The position numbers were made by a program, and so were the translations under genes. Below the pieces are notes generated by a model. The model was not told where the DNA came from and did not search any database. It saw only the letters and a list, made by a program, of their open reading frames with translations. DNA of 36,228 bases from an uncultured Blautia sp. (lineage in GTDB: Bacteria; Bacillota; Clostridia; Lachnospirales; Lachnospiraceae): the NCBI GenBank assembly GCA_946545475.1, contig CAMNNO010000009.1:1-36228 (forward strand). The letters run 5' to 3'. Numbering within the stretch: position 1 is the first letter of the stretch; every line of letters starts with the position of its first letter. Below, in pieces: positions 2,266 to 23,691 of this stretch.

Positions 2266-2721
2266 TCACCCTCTCAACAACTCATTGTCTATAACCTCGT
2301 TGTCTAATTCATTAATGTTATGTACAATTTTGCCGGTATTCAGAACGCGGATACAAAATTCATCATACCCAAAGTCCATCAAATATCCGAGGCGTATCGT
2401 CACATCCTTTTCCTTTCCGATTGCCAAAAGCCACTTAGCGCAATTGTCACCGCAAGCGGACGCATTAAAAATGTGTTCTTGATCCTTTGAAATAAGGATC
2501 AGAGTTTTTACTCCTCCCGACAGCCTTTCGGGAGGAATCGGACCCAATACCGGACTGATGATCAGATATTCTCCGGCAACCTCTGAACGGTCAATATCCA
2601 GTATCATTTTTCTTGATAATTCCTCAGTAAGCCATGTACTTTCATACCGATGGTTAAAAAAAGTGTCCGGGTCAAAGATATAATTATCCTTTTCCATTTC
2701 TCCATAATATATATTTAGCAC
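2266..2721 (-). CDS. DUF4869-like protein
   Basis: 151 aa, GTG start with GGGAGG SD; motifs LGPIPPERLSGGVKTLILI and HIFNASACGDNCAKWLLAIGKEKDVTIRLGYLMDFG match my recollection of the DUF4869 family. Confidence 0.7.
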   Translation of the reverse strand: MLNIYYGEMEKDNYIFDPDTFFNHRYESTWLTEELSRKMILDIDRSEVAGEYLIISPVLGPIPPERLSGGVKTLILISKDQEHIFNASACGDNCAKWLLAIGKEKDVTIRLGYLMDFGYDEFCIRVLNTGKIVHNINELDNEVIDNELLRG

Positions 2722-2734
2722 GTCTAATATCCTC

Positions 2735-2751
2735 CCAGAACATTATTCTGG
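2735..2751 (-). promoter_or_regulatory. Inverted repeat CCAGAA-N5-TTCTGG overlapping the Shine-Dalgarno of the DUF4869-like gene
   Basis: Perfect 6-5-6 inverted repeat immediately next to and overlapping GGGAGG. Confidence 0.5.
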
Positions 2752-2783
2752 CTTTAAGAAAAAAGAGCCGTCCATATTTCACA

Positions 2784-3074
2784 TTACAACTTTTTCACAT
2801 ATGCACTTTTCTGGTAAAAGGAAATCCTCTGCCAACAAAGATCCCGGCTTGAGGAAAGCCTGTTGAAAGCAGCCCTGTCCTCTTCGGAAGTCTTAGTGCT
2901 TTCTCTCAGTTCCAGATGCTTCTGGCAAAGATCCGCCAATTCGCCATGGCAGCACACCTCCTTATAACGGCGAGTTATGAAATGAGCCTTCATGATGTCA
3001 GCTTCCGCTTTCTTTGCTATCTCCTGAATTTTACCACAAGGCCGCTTTCCTTTCAATATGTCCCATTTTCTCAT
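2784..3074 (-). pseudogene. Multiply deleted remnant of an AAA-ATPase/PD-(D/E)XK nuclease gene (paralogue of 17352-19016)
   Basis: Contains LADLCQKHLELRESTKTSEEDRAAFNRLSS and C-terminus ISFYQKSAYVKKL of the 554-aa paralogue plus its upstream region; three internal deletions and frame changes. Confidence 0.9.
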
Positions 3075-3195
3075 CTATCCTCTAGGTGATAATGTGCCGT
3101 CCATGCCCCAAATGCCAAACAATCTCTTGTTTTTTTGCTCAATTATGCTATAAATATGTACATACAATCTATACACACAAAAGGAGGCTGATCAC

Positions 3196-3432
3196 ATGGC
3201 AAAGACTCGTGTTTTCCAAAATGGCAACAGCCAGGCACTGCGCATTCCGCAGGAAATGCGGACAGACCGCAAGGAATACAACATCAGCAAGATCGGTGAC
3301 ATTTTCATTGCCTATCCTGCAGACGATCCCTGGGCTCCGGTCCGACAGGTAATCGGTAGTTTTCCAGAGGATTTCATGGCTGACAGAAATCAGCCGGCCA
3401 TAGAGGATCTTCCGGAGCGGGAGGCATTCTGA
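3196..3432 (+). CDS. vapB: VapB-type AbrB/SpoVT-fold antitoxin
   Basis: 78 aa; MAKTRVFQNGNSQALRIPQEMR is a classic VapB N-terminus; AAGGAGG SD; TGATG overlap with the downstream PIN ORF. Confidence 0.85.
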   Translation: MAKTRVFQNGNSQALRIPQEMRTDRKEYNISKIGDIFIAYPADDPWAPVRQVIGSFPEDFMADRNQPAIEDLPEREAF

Positions 3433-3656
3433 TGTATTTGCTGGACACAAACATCTGTATCTGCTTCATGAAAAACACCTATCCGCAGCTTACACAGCGG
3501 CTCCTTTCCCACAGTCCTTCCGAACTTCTGATTTCTTCACTCACTGTTTTAGAATTAGAATACGGTGCAAAAAAAGCAACCGGGGCAGTAAAACAAGGCA
3601 AAAAATGGCCATATTCCTCTTTGATCAATCAGCGGGCGGGCGCTTTGCATACCTGA
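3432..3656 (+). pseudogene. vapC: Truncated VapC (PIN domain) toxin
   Basis: MYLLDTNICICFMKNTYPQLTQRLLSHSPSELLISSLTVLELEYGAKKA is the PIN N-terminal half; the rest of the domain is missing and the ORF runs into a terminator. Confidence 0.85.
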
Positions 3657-3676
3657 TGCCAAGCGCCCGCCTTTTA
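3635..3676 (+). terminator. Rho-independent terminator
   Basis: GGCGGGCGCTTTGCAT-loop-ATGCCAAGCGCCCGCC followed by TTTT. Confidence 0.8.
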
Positions 3677-3801
3677 TTATGGCAGGGCTGAGCAAAAGAA
3701 GAAGTCGCCCTTGGCGACGCGCGGCCCGCCGGGGTAGAGGTCGGGGCGCCTCCCTCTATCCTATTGGGGATCAGATGCCCTCCTTTATCTTATCTATATT
3801 C

Positions 3802-12142: not shown

Positions 12143-14038
12143 ATGAAAAAACTGTTTCGTATAATGATGATGACGGCTTTGCTCGTGTGCCTGGTCCATA
12201 CGAGTGCCATGGCGCTGAATTATTCCGGCTGCCAGGACAATGAAGCCACGTTTGAAACCCTGGGCGAAGCCCGCCAAAGCGGCCCAGCCGCAGTGGAAAA
12301 CCTTGAAACCAACGTTGGCAAGGTTTATGTCTCGCATCCGGTTCTGGATGGTTATCCGGAAGATGCCACATTTATTTACCGCTCCCCGAACCTGTTCGGC
12401 GGACGTGCGGCCGCCCGTCTGAACACCAACATCGTCGTGTTTGCCGAGAAAGCTTTTGAAAGCAAGGATGCTGCGTTTGCTTATCTGCAAGATCTGGGCC
12501 TGATCGACATCATCAACGAAGCCATCGGCAGCGTAGTCCTGGTTACGCCTGCGAACGGCGAAGCCTTCACCCAGGCCGACCAGCTGAATTATTACAAACT
12601 GCAGACGGCCATGCTGGCGCAGAAGGCGACAGGCAAGGATGAAGCCGGCGAAGCCGTGTCCTACTGCGATGCCGAGTACTTTGGCGGCTATGGCTACCTG
12701 TATGTCATCGGTATTGAAGGCGGCGCAACCTTCCTGAACAACTTCGTATCCAGCACCTACGATTATGTCAGCCGCATCGCCGGGCTTCTGCTCATCAATG
12801 GCAACATGGACCGCATCCGCAAGGTGGCGGCTCTGGTGCCGGCCTACCTTGTAAACGCCAGCGACGCCGTGGTCGAAAAATATAAAGCGGCTAATGAGAC
12901 CGATTCCTTCATGCGCTACCATGACGTGGACATCTATTTCAACCTGGACCGCCCCCTGCAGAAGGTTGCGGTTGTCGCCGATGAGGAGGCGGACTACGCC
13001 TCTTATATCAAAGACGCCTACTACAACATGTTCATCAAGGCTATGCGCGTGCCGGTCATCTACCGCGGCCTCTACACCGCCGCCACCCCGTACCAGGGCT
13101 ATGGCTTTGACGAAGCCCCCTATTCCCTGTGCGACCGCAACGCGATGATCAACGGGAGGACAGAAGACGGTATCATCATCATCCGCCACGACGAGGATAA
13201 GTTCAGCGATATTCAGACGCCCGAAGGCGACTATATGCAAACCTGGTTTGAGTTCCTGCCCGAGGAAGTGCTGGACGGCACCGCGCCGGCCGGAACGGTT
13301 CCGCTGATCCTGGCAAACCATGGCGGCGGCGACGACCCGCGCCTGTTTGTTGACGAAATCGGCCTGCTGGAACTCATCGGCAAGGAACGCATCGCGATCG
13401 TCGCCGGCGAGCATCAGGGCAAGAGCGCGATCCGCGCGGCCGTATTCCCGAAACTCGTCGAATATATGCTGGAAACCTATCCCGCTCTGGACGCTTCCCG
13501 TGTCTATGTCACCGGTTACTCCATGGGTGGCATGGGAACCATGGCCGCCATCTATGGCAAGCCTGAACTCTTTGCAGCCGCGGTCGGCATGTCCTTCGCG
13601 CCTATCCAGGCGACGGACGAGCAGCTGGCGCACATTGCGGAAGTGGGAATGCCTCTCATGATGACCACCTCTTCCTTCGACGCGGGCGGCGCGTTCGACG
13701 CCGTGAATGACCACATCTCCGAAGCGTATCAGGAGCGCCTGAACCGTTTCGCCACCTACAACGATGTGGAACCCGTCGGGGAATTCGATTTCGAGGCCTA
13801 TCCTCTCAGCGGCTTCAAGGGCGATTGCCTGGTTGTCCGGATGCTGAACAACGAATATAAGAATTATACCTGGTATCTGGAGAACAGCAAGGGTGAACCC
13901 GTGATGGCCCTGAGCGTCACGGAGGACCTGATTCACGCCCTGTATCCGGAATTTGGCAAAATCATGTGGGATTTCGCGAAGCACTTCAGCCGCGATCCTG
14001 AGACGTTCGAAATCACCTATGATCCTTATGTGGACTGA
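12143..14038 (+). CDS. Secreted esterase/alpha-beta hydrolase (polymer-esterase-like), copy 1
   Basis: 631 aa; signal peptide MKKLFRIMMMTALLVCLVHTSAMA; C-terminal hydrolase VPLILANHGGGDDPRLFVDEIG, YVTGYSMGGMGTMAAIYGKPELFAAAVGMS. Confidence 0.85.
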   Translation: MKKLFRIMMMTALLVCLVHTSAMALNYSGCQDNEATFETLGEARQSGPAAVENLETNVGKVYVSHPVLDGYPEDATFIYRSPNLFGGRAAARLNTNIVVFAEKAFESKDAAFAYLQDLGLIDIINEAIGSVVLVTPANGEAFTQADQLNYYKLQTAMLAQKATGKDEAGEAVSYCDAEYFGGYGYLYVIGIEGGATFLNNFVSSTYDYVSRIAGLLLINGNMDRIRKVAALVPAYLVNASDAVVEKYKAANETDSFMRYHDVDIYFNLDRPLQKVAVVADEEADYASYIKDAYYNMFIKAMRVPVIYRGLYTAATPYQGYGFDEAPYSLCDRNAMINGRTEDGIIIIRHDEDKFSDIQTPEGDYMQTWFEFLPEEVLDGTAPAGTVPLILANHGGGDDPRLFVDEIGLLELIGKERIAIVAGEHQGKSAIRAAVFPKLVEYMLETYPALDASRVYVTGYSMGGMGTMAAIYGKPELFAAAVGMSFAPIQATDEQLAHIAEVGMPLMMTTSSFDAGGAFDAVNDHISEAYQERLNRFATYNDVEPVGEFDFEAYPLSGFKGDCLVVRMLNNEYKNYTWYLENSKGEPVMALSVTEDLIHALYPEFGKIMWDFAKHFSRDPETFEITYDPYVD

Positions 14039-14298: not shown

Positions 14299-16203
14299 AT
14301 GAAGAAAAGATTTTTCAGCCTGATGCTGGCTCTGTCCATGATTCTGAGTCTCACCACAAGCATGGACACGTTTGCGCTGAATTATCAGCAGCGCGCTGTT
14401 AATGAAGCCACGTTTGAGACATTGGAAGATGCCCATGCGAATTCCGAAGCGTTCGCGCTATCAAGCCGCCTGGGCGCGACGCCGACAACGGCCACCTCCT
14501 TCCCGCCGCACCCGGCGCTGGATGATTATCCCGAAGGAACAACCTATGTTTACCGTTCGGAAAACCTTTATGGCCGGACGGAAGCGATCCGTATGAACAC
14601 TAATCTGCTGGTCTATACGGATGAAACCTTCGAGGATAAGGATGCCGCCTACGCCTATCTGGAATCGCTTGGCCTGATTGACATCATTGCCCAGGCAACC
14701 GGCAGCATTACACTGGTGACACCGGTTAACCCGGCAGCCGGATTCGGTGATGCGGACCAGGCCGCTTATTATAAGCTGCAGACGGCCATGTTCAGCTCCG
14801 AGTATGCCGAGTTTGCGTATTTTGGCGGCTTCGGCTTCCGCTATGTCATCGGTATCGGCGAAGGCGCGACGTTCCTGAATAATTACGTGGCCAGCAATGT
14901 GGATTATGTCGGACGTAACGCAGCCATGCTGCTGGTGGGCGGCTCCATGCAGTCCATCCGCGAGGTGGCGGCCCCTGTGCCGGTTTACCTGGTCAATCCC
15001 GGTGCGGTTGCGCGCGAACATTACGGCAAGGCCAACGGCGTGAATGCTTACAAAACCACCGGTGCCCTGGAAGTGGATTTTAACCAGGAACTGCCGGTGC
15101 GTCAGGTCGTCTCACTGTATACAGACGATGTCGATCTGAAGCAGATTGTGCAGGATGCTTATTACGGCCTGTTCATCAAGAGCATGCGCATCCCCTGCCT
15201 GTTCCAGGGACTGTACAGCGCAAGCACGCCTTATAAGGGATACAATTATGACGAGGCTCCCTATTCGCTGTGCGAGCGCCATGCCATCATCGACGGCAAG
15301 ACGGCGGAGGGCATCTATCTCTTTGAACGTCGGGGCGACCAATTCAAGGATTATGTATTCCCACGGAATGATATCGATGAATATATTGATACCTGGTATG
15401 AATTCCTGCCCGAGGAAGTGGTAAACCACACGGCTCCCGCCGGAAGCGTCCCGCTGGTGCTGGCCCTTCACGGCAATGGGGACGACCCGGTGCAATTCGT
15501 GGATAACAATGGCTGGCTGAATATGGCCTGTGAAAACCGCTTTGCGATCGTCGCGCCGTATTTCCAGCTGCTGTTTACAATGACACTGGATCGTATCCCG
15601 CTGTGTAAAGCCGCCTGCGCGGTGGCCCATTATATGCTTGAGGAGTATCCTGAACTGGATCCGTCCCGTGTCTATGTCGCCGGTTATTCAATGGGCGGCT
15701 GCGCGACACTCCACGCCGCGATCGAAGAGCCCGGCCTCTTTGCCGCCGCTGCGCCGATGTCCGCGACGCCCTATGACGGAACCGAGGAGCAGCTTGCGCA
15801 ATTCGAGACGCTGGACCTGCCGTTTATGTTCACAAATTCCACCTTTGACCTTGGCGGCGCCTATAATACACCGGCAGCCATGTATGGCTCCCGTGTGCTC
15901 AGTTTCATCAATCTGTTCCTGGGGTTCAACGAGATGCCGGTTATCGAAGAATTTGACGCCGATAACTATCCGCTCAGCGGCTTCGCCGGAGACCTGTATG
16001 TTCGAAAAACCCTGAACGGCGAATTTGTAAACCACACCTGGTACCTCAACAACGAAGACGGCATCCCGATGGTTGCCATGAGTACTACGGAAGGCCTCGT
16101 CCATATGCTGTATCCGGAATACGGCAAGCTGGGATGGAACTTCGTCAAGCACTATTCCCGCGATCAGGAGACCGGCGAAATCATCTATGATCCGTACGCC
16201 TGA
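14299..16203 (+). CDS. Secreted esterase/alpha-beta hydrolase, copy 2 (tandem paralogue)
   Basis: 634 aa; signal peptide MKKRFFSLMLALSMILSLTTSMDTFA; VPLVLALHGNGDDPVQFVDNNGW, YVAGYSMGGCATLHAAIEEPGLFAAAAPMS; collinear with copy 1. Confidence 0.85.
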   Translation: MKKRFFSLMLALSMILSLTTSMDTFALNYQQRAVNEATFETLEDAHANSEAFALSSRLGATPTTATSFPPHPALDDYPEGTTYVYRSENLYGRTEAIRMNTNLLVYTDETFEDKDAAYAYLESLGLIDIIAQATGSITLVTPVNPAAGFGDADQAAYYKLQTAMFSSEYAEFAYFGGFGFRYVIGIGEGATFLNNYVASNVDYVGRNAAMLLVGGSMQSIREVAAPVPVYLVNPGAVAREHYGKANGVNAYKTTGALEVDFNQELPVRQVVSLYTDDVDLKQIVQDAYYGLFIKSMRIPCLFQGLYSASTPYKGYNYDEAPYSLCERHAIIDGKTAEGIYLFERRGDQFKDYVFPRNDIDEYIDTWYEFLPEEVVNHTAPAGSVPLVLALHGNGDDPVQFVDNNGWLNMACENRFAIVAPYFQLLFTMTLDRIPLCKAACAVAHYMLEEYPELDPSRVYVAGYSMGGCATLHAAIEEPGLFAAAAPMSATPYDGTEEQLAQFETLDLPFMFTNSTFDLGGAYNTPAAMYGSRVLSFINLFLGFNEMPVIEEFDADNYPLSGFAGDLYVRKTLNGEFVNHTWYLNNEDGIPMVAMSTTEGLVHMLYPEYGKLGWNFVKHYSRDQETGEIIYDPYA

Positions 16204-19146: not shown

Positions 19147-20136
19147 TCACATGTTTGTCTTTTCTGTCTCCATCTGCCATGTCAGCCTGTCGGCGTCCTG
19201 ATATCCGGCGGTCAGCGCCAGGTTCTGGATGGCAGCGTTGGCGGCTCTTCTTTCACTCTCCTGGCGTTTCGCGCCAAACCGGCAGCTGTCCTTCATAAAC
19301 TGCCGGATAAATTCATAGCGTTTTAACACCTCAGATGCGTCCCCCTCCTTAATGGGGATAAGGGCATATGCGCGAAGCTTGTCCTGGTTCCGCTTCTCCT
19401 TTACTTCCTCCAAAAGCGTCTCAGCGTCCAGCTTCCCAAGAGAAGCGTCGGCGTAAAGCTGGGCGCGGCGGTGTCCGGCCGGGCCCTGAGAAACATATTT
19501 CGCGTACCGGTAGAGCAGCTGGAAACGCTTTTCTCCAAGTGCCTGCCAGGCTTCAAAGAACCATTTCCTGTCAAAGATTCCGTCGTTAAACTGCTCCGGC
19601 GTAAAAGGCGAGAACCCGGCAGCCTGGACGGCCTTAGCGGCAGAAAACCGTTCGCCCACGTGGGCATGGAAAAACCATACCCCACACTCAAGGCCCGGCC
19701 AGGAAAGCGCGCTTTCCGCAAACCCTGCCCACTGAGGGGCATACATCGCGGCCTCAGCAAGGCGTTCTTCTCTTATCTTCAATTCCCGGAAAAGCGTCCG
19801 GAAGCTCTCGGGCGTATCCGATCTCGCTGGATAACAGCGGCGCAGGAGCCGGCTTAAGACGAATGGCTTCTTCATGCTCTTCGCATATCCGTCATAGCCG
19901 CGGTAAAATTCTTCCTCCCCCAGGGCGGCAATAAGGCGCAAAAAGTGGCACGCTCCTTCAAAACGCTCGATATTAAGGGCCTGGAGAGTCACCTCGGACG
20001 GCAGGTCCCCCCTTTCCTCTTCTACTGTCACGATGCGGTCGACCACTTTCCTGGCCACCTCTTCTGCTCCGGGATGCCGCTGGTAAAAAGCCTTGAGTAC
20101 GCTGGGATTTTTAACAGTTATAATAAATATATACAA
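19147..20136 (-). pseudogene. Internal fragment of a DUF5724/DUF4132-like protein
   Basis: 329 aa (TTG start, stop codon directly upstream); ...FSPFTPEQFNDGIFDRKWFFEAWQALGEKRFQLLYRYAKYVSQGPAGHRRAQLYADASLGKLDAETLLEEVKEKRNQDKLRAYALIPI...ALTAGYQDADRLTWQMETE resembles this family and ends abruptly. Confidence 0.6.
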
Positions 20137-20246
20137 ACATTAATATATACCAATAAATCTTGCCCTGCTCAATCATTATAATCAGATATTTTTCTTGCAC
20201 TTCGAAAAATAAGGCTTTAAAACATGAGATTATTTTTGAGTTTATA

Positions 20247-20275
20247 TTGACCTTTTATAGATAAAATGGTATTAT
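20247..20275 (+). promoter_or_regulatory. Promoter of the Uma2-tnpB unit
   Basis: TTGACC-N17-TATTAT upstream of GGAGG and the 20291 start. Confidence 0.6.
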
Positions 20276-20290
20276 AACAACTGAGAGGAG

Positions 20291-21097
20291 GTGTCAGTTT
20301 TGACTGTTGAAGAAATGAATGAGCGGAAACGAATCCTGGGCTACAGCTATGAGCAGATTTCCCACTTATCCGGCGTTCCGGATAGCACGGTCCGAAAAAT
20401 CCTTGGAGGGGTTACCAGGCGTCCGCGTTATGCCACGCTTACCGCGCTGGCGCAGGTACTCCGGGAGCCTACGCCAGCAGATATTTATGGCGCGGTAAAA
20501 AAACAGGGTCAGTACACGCTGGATGATTATCTTGCCCTGCCGCCGGAAAGGCGGGCAGAGCTGATCGACGGGGCACTCTATGATATGAGCATCCCCACAG
20601 TCTATCACCAGTTGATCGTTGGCCAGCTGTATGCCATGTTCCTTTTCTTTACCCGCGGCAAAAGCGACAGAGGTATGCCTTTTGTCTCTCCTGTGGAGGT
20701 TTTGCTGGATCATGATAACAGAACCGTTGTCCAGCCGGATCTCTTTATCCTGTGTGACTGGAATAAATATACCCCTGACAGGATCATAGGAGCTCCGGAC
20801 TATGTGGCTGAGGTTATCTCAAAGCCGACCCACCACAGGGATGTCTTCATCAAGCTTTCCTGCTACAAAAGTGCAGGCGTTCGGGAATACTGGATCATCG
20901 ATCCGGACAAAAAGTCTGTGATGGTCTGGGATTTCGATAATGACGACCGTGCCGCCGTATATGATTTCCGAAGCCGCATCCCTGTTGGCATCTATGGCGG
21001 AGAACTCATCATTGATTTTGCGGAAATAGACGATCATCTAAGCCAGTGGATGTCACCTGTTCCGGGTCGGGGTTCTGAAGAGCCGTTTTCTGAATAA
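20291..21097 (+). CDS. Uma2 family (DUF820) endonuclease with N-terminal XRE-like HTH
   Basis: 268 aa; HTH NERKRILGYSYEQISHLSGVPDSTVRKILGG; Uma2 motifs AELIDGALYDMS, VVQPDLFILCD, GAPDYVAEVIS, KLSCYKSAGVREYWIIDPDKKSVMVW. Confidence 0.92.
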   Translation: MSVLTVEEMNERKRILGYSYEQISHLSGVPDSTVRKILGGVTRRPRYATLTALAQVLREPTPADIYGAVKKQGQYTLDDYLALPPERRAELIDGALYDMSIPTVYHQLIVGQLYAMFLFFTRGKSDRGMPFVSPVEVLLDHDNRTVVQPDLFILCDWNKYTPDRIIGAPDYVAEVISKPTHHRDVFIKLSCYKSAGVREYWIIDPDKKSVMVWDFDNDDRAAVYDFRSRIPVGIYGGELIIDFAEIDDHLSQWMSPVPGRGSEEPFSE

Positions 21098-21123
21098 AGA
21101 ACGGAAAAATGAGGTAAAGACAG

Positions 21124-22311
21124 ATGCTGTTGGCAAAGAAGATAAAGCTGTGCCCGACGCCTGAGCAGGAAGACCTGTTCAGAAGGAGTGCCGGTACCGC
21201 GAGGTGGGCCTATAATTACTATCTCTCGGAAAACGACCGCCTGTGGAAAGAATACCTGAATAATGGGAAGACAGGAAAAAGGGGAATATCGGAAGGCGAA
21301 GTCAGGAAATATATCAATAACGTTCTGAAAAAGACGACTCATACGTGGCTTAAGGATGTCGGCAGCAATGTCATGAAGCAGGGCGTTAAGGATGCTGCTG
21401 ATGCCATGAAGAGATTCTTAAAGGGGCAGGCCGGAAGGCCGGACTATAAGTCGAAGAAAAGATCAAAGCCGTCATTCTATGTGAATTATGAAAGCCTTTC
21501 CCGGCGAGAAGGGGGCTTCCACGGAGAAAAAATGGGCTTCGTGCGGACATCGGAACCCCTGCCCGTCCTGCCGGAAGGAACGAAGTATTCCAATCCCCGG
21601 ATCTCTTTTGACGGGAAATACTGGTATCTGGCTGTCGCGTATGAAGAGCCCTGCATTCCCGCCTTGCTTACCGGAGAGAGCATCGGGATCGACCTGGGCG
21701 TCAAAAAACTGGCGGTGTGCTCGGATGGGAGCGTTTATGAGAACATCAATCGTTCGCGGACCGTCAGGCGCCTTGAAAAGACCCTTAAGAGGGAGCAGCG
21801 GAAGCTGTCAAGGATGCGCGAAAAGAAGATCACAGGCTATGAAAAAAAGAACGGCAAAGAGGTGCCGGTCTTTGACAGGCCTCTGGATGAGTATAAAAAC
21901 TACCAGAAGCAGAAGGAAAAAATAAAACATCTATACCGGCGTCTTGTGAACATTCGGAACAATCATTTGCACCAGGCGACTGCAAAGATAGTGAAAACCA
22001 AGCCATCCCGCATCGTCATGGAGGATCTGAACGTAAAAGGAATGATGAAAAACCGGCATCTTTCAAAAGCGATCCAGAGCCAGAAGTTTTATGAGTTCAA
22101 GCGCCAGATGATCTACAAATGCCGGAAATATGGTATTGCGTTTGTCGAAGTGCCGAGGTTTTATCCAAGTTCAAAGACCTGCTCATGCTGTGGCCATATT
22201 AAGGAAGACCTGAAGCTTTCCGACCGGATCTACCGCTGTGACAAATGTGGACTTGTCATAGACAGGGATCTTAACGCGAGCCTGAATCTGGCGAACTACC
22301 AATCTGTATGA
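21124..22311 (+). CDS. tnpB: RNA-guided endonuclease TnpB (IS200/IS605 family OrfB)
   Basis: 395 aa; RuvC motifs IGIDLGVKKLAV, IVMEDLNVKGM, DRDLNASLNLANY; zinc finger CSCCG...CDKCG. All three acidic residues present. Confidence 0.96.
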   Translation: MLLAKKIKLCPTPEQEDLFRRSAGTARWAYNYYLSENDRLWKEYLNNGKTGKRGISEGEVRKYINNVLKKTTHTWLKDVGSNVMKQGVKDAADAMKRFLKGQAGRPDYKSKKRSKPSFYVNYESLSRREGGFHGEKMGFVRTSEPLPVLPEGTKYSNPRISFDGKYWYLAVAYEEPCIPALLTGESIGIDLGVKKLAVCSDGSVYENINRSRTVRRLEKTLKREQRKLSRMREKKITGYEKKNGKEVPVFDRPLDEYKNYQKQKEKIKHLYRRLVNIRNNHLHQATAKIVKTKPSRIVMEDLNVKGMMKNRHLSKAIQSQKFYEFKRQMIYKCRKYGIAFVEVPRFYPSSKTCSCCGHIKEDLKLSDRIYRCDKCGLVIDRDLNASLNLANYQSV

Positions 22312-22470
22312 TTTCACCGACAGGAAACTGCAGATGTGTACCCATCGCTACTGGGGAGTTTAAGCCTGTGGAGTGTCAAAGAAAACGGAAGTAGCGGAGG
22401 CGCAGGCCGAAGCAAACCCGGACACCTGAAGCAGGAAGATATTTCGTGAGGAATGTCAATGGTAGATATT
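22312..22470 (+). ncRNA. Candidate omega-RNA (reRNA) of the TnpB element, probably extending upstream into the tnpB 3' end
   Basis: Conserved-looking non-coding 3' region with pairings CGCTAC(22346-22351)/GTAGCG(22391-22396), CCTG(22365-22368)/CAGG(22432-22435), GTGTC(22373-22377)/GACAC(22421-22425), which interleave as a pseudoknot. Confidence 0.6.
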
Positions 22471-22490
22471 TTAAATTTATATAAATTTAA
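22471..22490. repeat. Perfect 20-bp palindrome TTAAATTTATATAAATTTAA
   Basis: Self-complementary sequence read directly, between the tnpB 3' region and the 22497-23588 ORF end. Confidence 0.85.
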
Positions 22491-22496
22491 GTATAT

Positions 22497-23588
22497 TTAT
22501 CGTAGCGGATGATAGCCTCCTCCCGTCAAAAAGAGGATATCTCCCATGGGAAGGTACCCGTCGGGCATCTGCAGCTCTTCCAAAGGCGCCTCTTTCATCA
22601 GATGTGCCATTAGGACATCCACAGGGGCGGCGCCCATCTCTATCGCCCTGAAATAATCGTCCAGACCAAGCCTATCCGTTGTTACGCTTCCGGCCAGCTT
22701 TTCCACGCGGCATTCAAAAGAGAACCACAAGGTAAAGTCCTCATCTGAGAGGGGAAGCGTTTTAATAAGGTGCCGCCAGACGCCAAGCATCCGGTGATTG
22801 ATCACCGCGCCGACATCATGAAATATCTCTGTGCGGCGATAAAACCTTCCCAGGTTTTCCTCGCCCACTATGGCGACCAGTCCTCGGTACAGGCGAAAAG
22901 CCAGGGCAAAGACCTCATGAGTGCCAAACTCCAGCAGTTTCAGGCGGATGATCTGGTGAAACCAGGCTTCTCGCCGTAAATGTTGTTCTTTTATATCCGG
23001 CCGCCAAAACATGGGGGACAGGTTTTTCTCTTCGATAGGGACAAACCAGGGTTCTGTATGGTATTCGCCGTCCGGCGTTAAAGGCCTCCCGTAATCATCT
23101 GTCACGGCATAAAGGCCCGCGATCTCATCGATCCTGCCGGCGTCATCCCCGAACGCTTCCCGGAACTCCCCGGAAAAAGGCAGCATGTCCAGCCTGGCCT
23201 GCTCCTCATGGGCGAAACTGCAGGGACTGCCGGCCGGTAAGGGGAGAAAAGAGTGGAAAGAGGTCCCGAAAAGAACACTTCCGCTCTTCCCGTCAGGACC
23301 GGCCGTTTCGTAGACATAATCTCTGTGGCGTTCAAAAATGTCGGCCATGTTGTGCCAGATGACATCCACAAAAGCTTCTTCCGGAAAGATTTTCCGGATC
23401 TCCTCTTCCGCCATGGGACTGTACGCTCCCTGAATCTCGCCCGCCACAGAAAGGACCCGATAAGACTGTTCCTCAAAGGCGGCCACCTTTTCCGGAGCGT
23501 AAAGGCCAAAGCCGCAGCTTCGTGTAAGGAGACCTGACTCGTCCGGCTCCTTTATCTCCTGTTTGCCTGTTCCAGATTTTTTCACCAT
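22497..23588 (-). pseudogene. Probable N-terminal fragment of the same DUF5724/DUF4132-like protein (or a stand-alone hypothetical)
   Basis: 363 aa; WFHQIIRLKLLEFGTHEVFALAFRLYRGLVAIVGEENLGRFYRRTEIFHD...LPLSDEDFTLWF; ends at insertion boundary; co-oriented with the 19147-20136 fragment. Confidence 0.5.
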
Positions 23589-23610: not shown

Positions 23611-23681
23611 GGACAAGAAAAGGGGACGCTTCTTTTTTCTTGTGATCCGTAAGAAAAAAGAAACGTCCCCTTTTCTTGTCC
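23611..23681. repeat. Very long inverted repeat (31-bp arms, one mismatch, 9-nt loop)
   Basis: GGACAAGAAAAGGGGACGCTTCTTTTTTCTT-GTGATCCGT-AAGAAAAAAGAAACGTCCCCTTTTCTTGTCC. Confidence 0.92.
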
Positions 23682-23691
23682 CCCTCTCTTC

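What the first reader, a model, noticed from the sequence alone, without database searches (positions are those of the whole stretch)
20140..22490. Co-transcribed HTH-Uma2 endonuclease and TnpB, with no TnpA
Two predicted nucleases, HTH + PD-(D/E)XK Uma2 and an intact RuvC TnpB, are on the same strand 26 bp apart behind one promoter (TTGACC-N17-TATTAT). They sit where tnpA would normally precede tnpB, and together they appear to interrupt one gene. They could be one mobile unit in which Uma2 contributes to mobility, maintenance or regulation, or two successive insertions. I know of no described Uma2-TnpB partnership.
Basis: partly seen in the sequence, partly recalled or inferred. Interest (0 to 1): 0.64.

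Follow-up and report, generated by a model that had tools for sequence, protein, structure and literature searches.

The report
Jumping element carrying a stray nuclease
A small bacterial jumping element with an RNA-guided DNA cutter has lost its own transposase gene and carries an unrelated, common nuclease gene in that slot; the pairing was found only once, so it looks like an accidental passenger rather than a new two-nuclease system.

Summary
HTH-Uma2 (20300-21097) and an intact TnpB (21124-22311) lie head to tail inside a split DUF5724 gene. They lie inside one IS607-family element, 20107-22506, bounded by GG cores. The left end matches that of a second element in the same genome (contig C159), which carries a normal IS607 serine-recombinase tnpA in the Uma2 slot. 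The right end (TTTATCGTAGC|GG) and a RAGATH-18 guide-RNA scaffold are shared with TnpB elements of many Firmicutes. Joining the flanks at GG restores one open DUF5724 frame. So Uma2 is inside the element and replaces tnpA, with about 15 bp of the tnpA 3' end left. Its promoter resembles those of stand-alone HTH-Uma2 genes, so gene and promoter probably came together. HTH-Uma2 is common in the host family (80 of 397 genomes), but none of the 77 other such loci examined has tnpB next to it, and no other TnpB locus held has HTH-Uma2 in the slot. Best reading: a tnpA-less, RNA-guided IS607-type element with an accidental Uma2 passenger, movable, if at all, by a TnpA acting in trans. A functional Uma2-TnpB partnership is not excluded but has no support.

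The parts
19147..20106 (-). 3' (C-terminal) part of the interrupted DUF5724 gene, up to the left GG core
   Evidence: Pfam DUF5724 1.9e-125; the joined flanks give a 680-codon frame with no internal stop
20103..20106 (+). TGGG at the left junction: target core GG (20105-20106) and probable TAM
   Evidence: [A/C]TGGG precedes the left end in the C159 copy and in L083, L084, L094, L098
20107..20145 (+). left end of the IS607-type element (ATTTTTAACAGTTATAATAAATATATACAAA...)
   Evidence: 91% match over 43 bp (query 4-46) to the left end of the C159 element
20247..20275 (+). sigma-70-like promoter of the Uma2 module (TTGACC-N17-TATTAT)
   Evidence: consensus scan; the same TTGAC...ATGGTATTAT block lies upstream of stand-alone HTH-Uma2 genes L053 and L304
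20300..21097 (+). HTH-Uma2 (XRE-like HTH + PD-(D/E)XK), TTG start; GTG 20291 is an alternative
   Evidence: Pfam; PDB 9y1l 7.6e-24 and 6okh 4.1e-21; candidate catalytic residues D147, E171, K185 invariant in the alignment
21109..21123 (+). remnant of the tnpA 3' end (tnpA overlaps the tnpB start in the paralogue)
   Evidence: 89% DNA match to C159 begins here (query 1010)
21124..22311 (+). tnpB, 395 aa, RuvC motifs and CxxC zinc motifs present
   Evidence: NCBIfam guided_TnpB 9.4e-92; 8iaz (ISFba1 TnpB) 8.6e-71
22312..22506 (+). guide-RNA (reRNA) scaffold region, with RAGATH-18 at 22365-22437
   Evidence: Rfam RF03064 above gathering score; the same position behind tnpB in the relatives scanned; alignment
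22496..22508 (+). right end TTTATCGTAGC plus GG core
   Evidence: identical in the 10 relatives of alignment A1, flanks differing; retained in C159 as ATCGTAGC|GG
22509..22528 (+). predicted guide, taken from the host flank
   Evidence: inferred from position, by analogy with ISFba1 (20-nt guide, PMC11061315)
22509..23588 (-). 5' (N-terminal) part of the interrupted DUF5724 gene
   Evidence: Pfam DUF5724 4.6e-14; its frame continues through the joined junction

Best explanation
This is one IS607-family insertion of about 2.4 kb (20107-22506 plus one GG core) in a DUF5724 gene. It encodes an RNA-guided TnpB nuclease with a RAGATH-18-type guide RNA. Its serine-recombinase gene tnpA has been replaced by a stand-alone HTH-Uma2 gene that brought its own promoter. 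Shown: the ends, the GG target, the restored host frame, the tnpA remnant, and the paralogue with tnpA in the slot. Inferred: TnpB with its guide RNA recognises the re-sealed site (TGGG followed by ATGATAGCCTCCTCCCGTCA) and cuts it, so that repair from an occupied copy keeps the element in place. The element can excise only if a TnpA acts in trans; the intact TnpA of the C159 element, whose ends match, is the obvious candidate. Uma2 is a passenger, transcribed ahead of tnpB, and acts independently, probably as a self-regulated nuclease as in its many stand-alone homologues.
For: The C159 paralogue has the same left end, then MerR-HTH + resolvase TnpA (Pfam Resolvase 1.6e-18, MerR 7.9e-10), then tnpB 89% identical over its surviving part, then the same right end. 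Right end and RAGATH-18 are conserved across relatives. TGGG precedes five other left ends. The frame across the joined flanks is open. TnpB is closest to ISFba1 TnpB (PDB 8IAZ), a proven guide-RNA nuclease (PMC11061315). HTH-Uma2 relatives are common in the family (80 of 397 genomes at E<=1e-40), and none of the 77 other HTH-Uma2 loci examined has a neighbouring tnpB. No TnpB locus held has HTH-Uma2 in the slot. The Uma2 promoter resembles those of its stand-alone relatives. All 64 genus genomes were searched and no second copy was found outside this genome.
Against: No second copy of the Uma2-TnpB arrangement exists in the data held, so it cannot be shown that the composite ever moved as a unit; Uma2 could have replaced tnpA after the insertion. 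No close empty-site allele was found: the N-part query found nothing in 60 relatives, and the nearest intact DUF5724 is 59% identical over the C-part and has a gap at the insertion point. The TGGG TAM is read from flanks only; published TAMs of relatives are AGGAG and GAGGG. The AT-rich inverted repeat of IS607 ends is clear in relatives but not significant in this copy.
Confidence: 0.78

Rival explanations
1. Uma2 is selected cargo: for example a single-gene anti-phage or anti-plasmid nuclease that the element carries and that benefits host and element, without touching transposition.
For: The Uma2 domain matches PADLOC candidate defence family PDC-S03 (1.6e-35); the gene, promoter and candidate catalytic residues are intact.
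Against: Only one instance; PDC-S03 is a candidate family, and its function is not tested here. HTH-Uma2 genes are multicopy and stand-alone in the family, so capture by chance is easy.
Confidence: 0.12
2. Uma2 takes over a TnpA-like or regulatory role: its nuclease domain nicks or cuts the element ends, or its HTH represses the shared promoter so that Uma2 controls TnpB and guide-RNA levels.
For: It sits exactly in the tnpA slot, upstream of and probably co-transcribed with tnpB; its HTH could repress the promoter they share.
Against: No recurrence among relatives. Uma2 homologues have no link to IS607 ends. A PD-(D/E)XK nuclease has no known way to do serine-recombinase strand exchange. The promoter belongs to the Uma2 type, so any autoregulation predates the pairing.
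Confidence: 0.05
3. Two successive insertions at one place: Uma2 came in by its own mobile unit next to, or into, a tnpB element.
For: The stretch of roughly 100 bp between the left end and the Uma2 promoter has no convincing match among the loci held; Uma2 and its promoter look like a transplanted module.
Against: The IS607 left end lies upstream of Uma2 and the tnpA 3' remnant downstream, so Uma2 is inside the element, not beside it. No independent ends were seen around Uma2.
Confidence: 0.05

Closest known systems
IS607 TnpB - RAGATH-18 reRNA nucleases (ISFba1 TnpB, PDB 8IAZ; PMC11061315)
   Same: TnpB of about 390 aa, RAGATH-18 RNA just downstream, guide taken past the right end, homologous over 387 residues (8.6e-71)
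   Different: Probable TAM TGGG here versus AGGAG or GAGGG; tnpA replaced by HTH-Uma2. No Uma2 is mentioned in that paper.
Group B IStrons / ISBth15-type IS607 elements (PMC4227781)
   Same: IS607 ends with GG-containing target, tnpB present, tnpA often lost; relatives L084 and L094 look like such elements
   Different: No group I intron in the window copy; Uma2 in the tnpA slot.
The C159 element of the same genome (L023:2348-3704)
   Same: Same left and right ends, tnpB 89% identical over the part that survives
   Different: Carries tnpA; its own tnpB is frameshifted and its 3' part with the guide RNA is deleted between ATCGT repeats.
Stand-alone HTH-Uma2 genes of the same bacterial family (e.g. 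L053, L303)
   Same: Same HTH + Uma2 architecture (51-60% identity for the closest), same promoter block in L053 and L304
   Different: None has tnpB next to it.

Membership tests
IS607 family insertion sequence | insertion at GG with a single core at each junction | tested here: met
   GG at 20105-20106 and 22507-22508; frame open after joining; GG targets reported for IS607 (PMC4227781)
IS607 family insertion sequence | serine-recombinase TnpA encoded in the element | tested here: not met
   only a 15-bp remnant of its 3' end; present in the C159 paralogue. The window copy is therefore a tnpA-less derivative, not an autonomous IS607
IS607 family insertion sequence | ends shared with an IS607 element that has tnpA | tested here: met
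   left 91% over 43 bp, right ATCGTAGC|GG
IS607 family insertion sequence | imperfect AT-rich inverted repeats at the ends | tested here: inconclusive
   significant in L083, L084, L094; not in the window copy
RAGATH-18-guided IS607 TnpB nuclease | TnpB with RuvC and zinc motifs | tested here: met
RAGATH-18-guided IS607 TnpB nuclease | RAGATH-18 RNA between tnpB and the right end | tested here: met
RAGATH-18-guided IS607 TnpB nuclease | guide-dependent DNA cleavage | not testable with these tools
   needs biochemistry
IStron | group I intron at the left side | tested here: not met
   no Rfam intron hit in the window
Uma2 (PF05685) PD-(D/E)XK protein | Uma2 domain above curated cut-off with active-site residues | tested here: met
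   88.2 bits against a cut-off of 27; invariant D147, E171, K185
Conserved Uma2-TnpB system | recurrence of the adjacency in independent genomes | tested here: not met
   absent from 77 other HTH-Uma2 loci, from all TnpB loci held, and from all 64 genus genomes

The most novel reading that the evidence does not exclude
A composite mobile unit in which an HTH-Uma2 nuclease has functionally replaced the serine recombinase of an IS607-type element, or controls its TnpB and guide RNA, so that two nucleases jointly maintain or move it.
Probability: 0.05. Interest if true: 0.7.

Novelty: new variant of a known kind. Interest (0 to 1): 0.27.

Why it matters
It is a clean example of how a tnpA-less TnpB element can pick up an unrelated gene in the transposase slot while keeping the ends, guide-RNA scaffold and nuclease. 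The same genome also holds the complementary element (tnpA intact, tnpB broken), so mobilisation in trans and RNA-guided retention could be tested with natural parts. It does not establish a new nuclease partnership.

Tried and rejected
Searched for a second Uma2-TnpB pair: own genome, 397 family genomes by DNA, Uma2 and TnpB, all 64 genus genomes, genome contigs with TnpB (305 relatives of the query, best 80 kept), viral contigs, plasmids and phages with Uma2. None found. L091 and L288 hold a Uma2 and a TnpA/TnpB in the same locus but more than 1 kb apart and in opposite orientation: rejected as coincidence. Searched the own genome for further right ends: only the window has an exact match, and the 13 matches in all (with up to 3 mismatches) are close to the 8 of the reversed-pattern control; the C63 match lies in repetitive, probably coding sequence. 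An intact DUF5724 empty allele close enough to prove the exact empty site was not found. A group I intron in the window element (IStron) was considered and rejected. Misassembly considered: the shared stretches with C159 are 89-91% identical, not identical, so a repeat-induced join is unlikely. One paper search failed on term length.

Full report
What is there. On the + strand lie an HTH-Uma2 ORF (20300-21097, or from GTG 20291) and an intact tnpB (21124-22311), 26 bp apart. Uma2 matches Pfam PF05685 at 5.6e-25 with weaker HTH_3/HTH_31 matches; TnpB matches OrfB_IS605, Cas12f1-like_TNB and HTH_OrfB_IS605 above cut-off and NCBIfam guided_TnpB at 9.4e-92. Both flanking minus-strand ORFs belong to DUF5724, the two parts covering profile 589-889 and 912-1214. 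A RAGATH-18 RNA lies behind tnpB at 22365-22437.

Element ends. The same genome holds a second copy on contig C159 (L023). It shares 43 bp of left end (91%) and then, from window 21109 on, 89% of the sequence into tnpB. Its right end reads ATCGTAGC|GG. Between left end and tnpB it encodes a 213-aa protein with MerR HTH and resolvase domains, that is an IS607-type TnpA, which overlaps the tnpB start. The window has HTH-Uma2 in that place and keeps about 15 bp of the tnpA 3' end (21109-21123). The right end TTTATCGTAGC|GG is identical in the ten relatives aligned, with unrelated DNA after it. The left end is preceded by TGGG in the window, C159, L083, L084, L094 and L098. If the flanks are joined at GG, the DUF5724 halves form one 680-codon frame with no internal stop. 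The element is therefore 20107-22506 plus one GG, and Uma2 lies inside it. IS607 elements and group B IStrons are reported to use GG-containing targets (PMC4227781).

TnpB and guide RNA. The closest solved relative is 8IAZ, ISFba1 TnpB (8.6e-71), from the paper that showed IS607 TnpBs to be nucleases guided by RAGATH-18-derived RNAs (PMC11061315). All 16 relatives scanned carry RAGATH-18 behind tnpB. The window RNA is intact enough to pass the Rfam threshold, with a longer variable hairpin. I infer that the guide is ATGATAGCCTCCTCCCGTCA (22509-22528) and the TAM TGGG; neither was tested.

Uma2. Close relatives with the same HTH + Uma2 architecture occur in 80 of 397 genomes of the family, and the nearest are 51-60% identical. 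The candidate active-site residues D147, E171 and K185 are invariant in the alignment, and solved Uma2-type proteins match (9y1l, 6okh, 3ot2). The promoter block of the window (TTGAC...ATGGTATTAT) occurs upstream of L053 and L304, so I infer that the Uma2 gene arrived with its promoter.

Is the pairing conserved? No. In 77 other HTH-Uma2 loci none has TnpB beside it, and in the TnpB loci held none has HTH-Uma2 in the slot. In the slot, the close relatives have full tnpA, a tnpA fragment, no ORF, or a neighbouring host gene that lies outside the element where the left end is visible. All 64 genomes of the genus were searched and only this genome has the element. The survey has limits: the family was sampled, one search kept only the 80 best loci, the genome search scores a limited number of candidates per genome, and metagenomes could not be scanned.

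Mechanism. Shown: structure and ends. Inferred: TnpB and its guide RNA retain the element by cutting the empty site; movement, if any, needs TnpA in trans. The C159 element has an intact-looking tnpA but a frameshifted tnpB with its 3' part and guide RNA deleted between two ATCGT repeats, while the window copy has tnpB and guide RNA but no tnpA, so the two are complementary. Uma2 is best read as a passenger. Its match to the PADLOC candidate family PDC-S03 leaves room for a defence role. A direct role in transposition has no support.

Verdict. Interest is modest.

Noticed in passing
L023 (G000:C159) 2348-3704: Second IS607-type element of the genome: tnpA intact, tnpB frameshifted, and its 3' half plus guide RNA deleted between two ATCGT repeats, with both ends kept. 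It complements the window element.
   Followed up: partly
upstream of HTH-Uma2 genes in 76 loci (e.g. L053, L056, L063, L075): Repeated half-sites such as TGGATA, TGGTTGA, CGGTTGA around the promoter: 151 found against about 26 in mononucleotide shuffles. This suggests a conserved operator and autoregulation of HTH-Uma2 genes; the pattern was chosen after looking, and the window copy has only one site.
   Followed up: partly
window 23612-23685; also L023 about 2125-2185: Long palindrome (GGGGACGcTTCTTTTTTCTT...AAGAAAAAAGAAaCGTCCCC) repeated on another contig: a dispersed REP-like palindrome.
   Followed up: no
L084, L094: Close TnpB relatives in uncultured Clostridia whose left part looks like group I intron sequence: apparent IStrons with tnpA nearly gone and RAGATH-18 behind tnpB. 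The intron was recognised by eye; Rfam did not report it at its gathering score.
   Followed up: no
window 12143-14038 and 14299-16203: Two neighbouring paralogous secreted hydrolase-like genes (631 and 634 aa) on the + strand.
   Followed up: no
window 22509-23588: The N-part of the DUF5724 gene lacks the first ~590 profile positions although family members have ORFs of about 1700 codons; the host gene may be a short or already truncated form.
   Followed up: no
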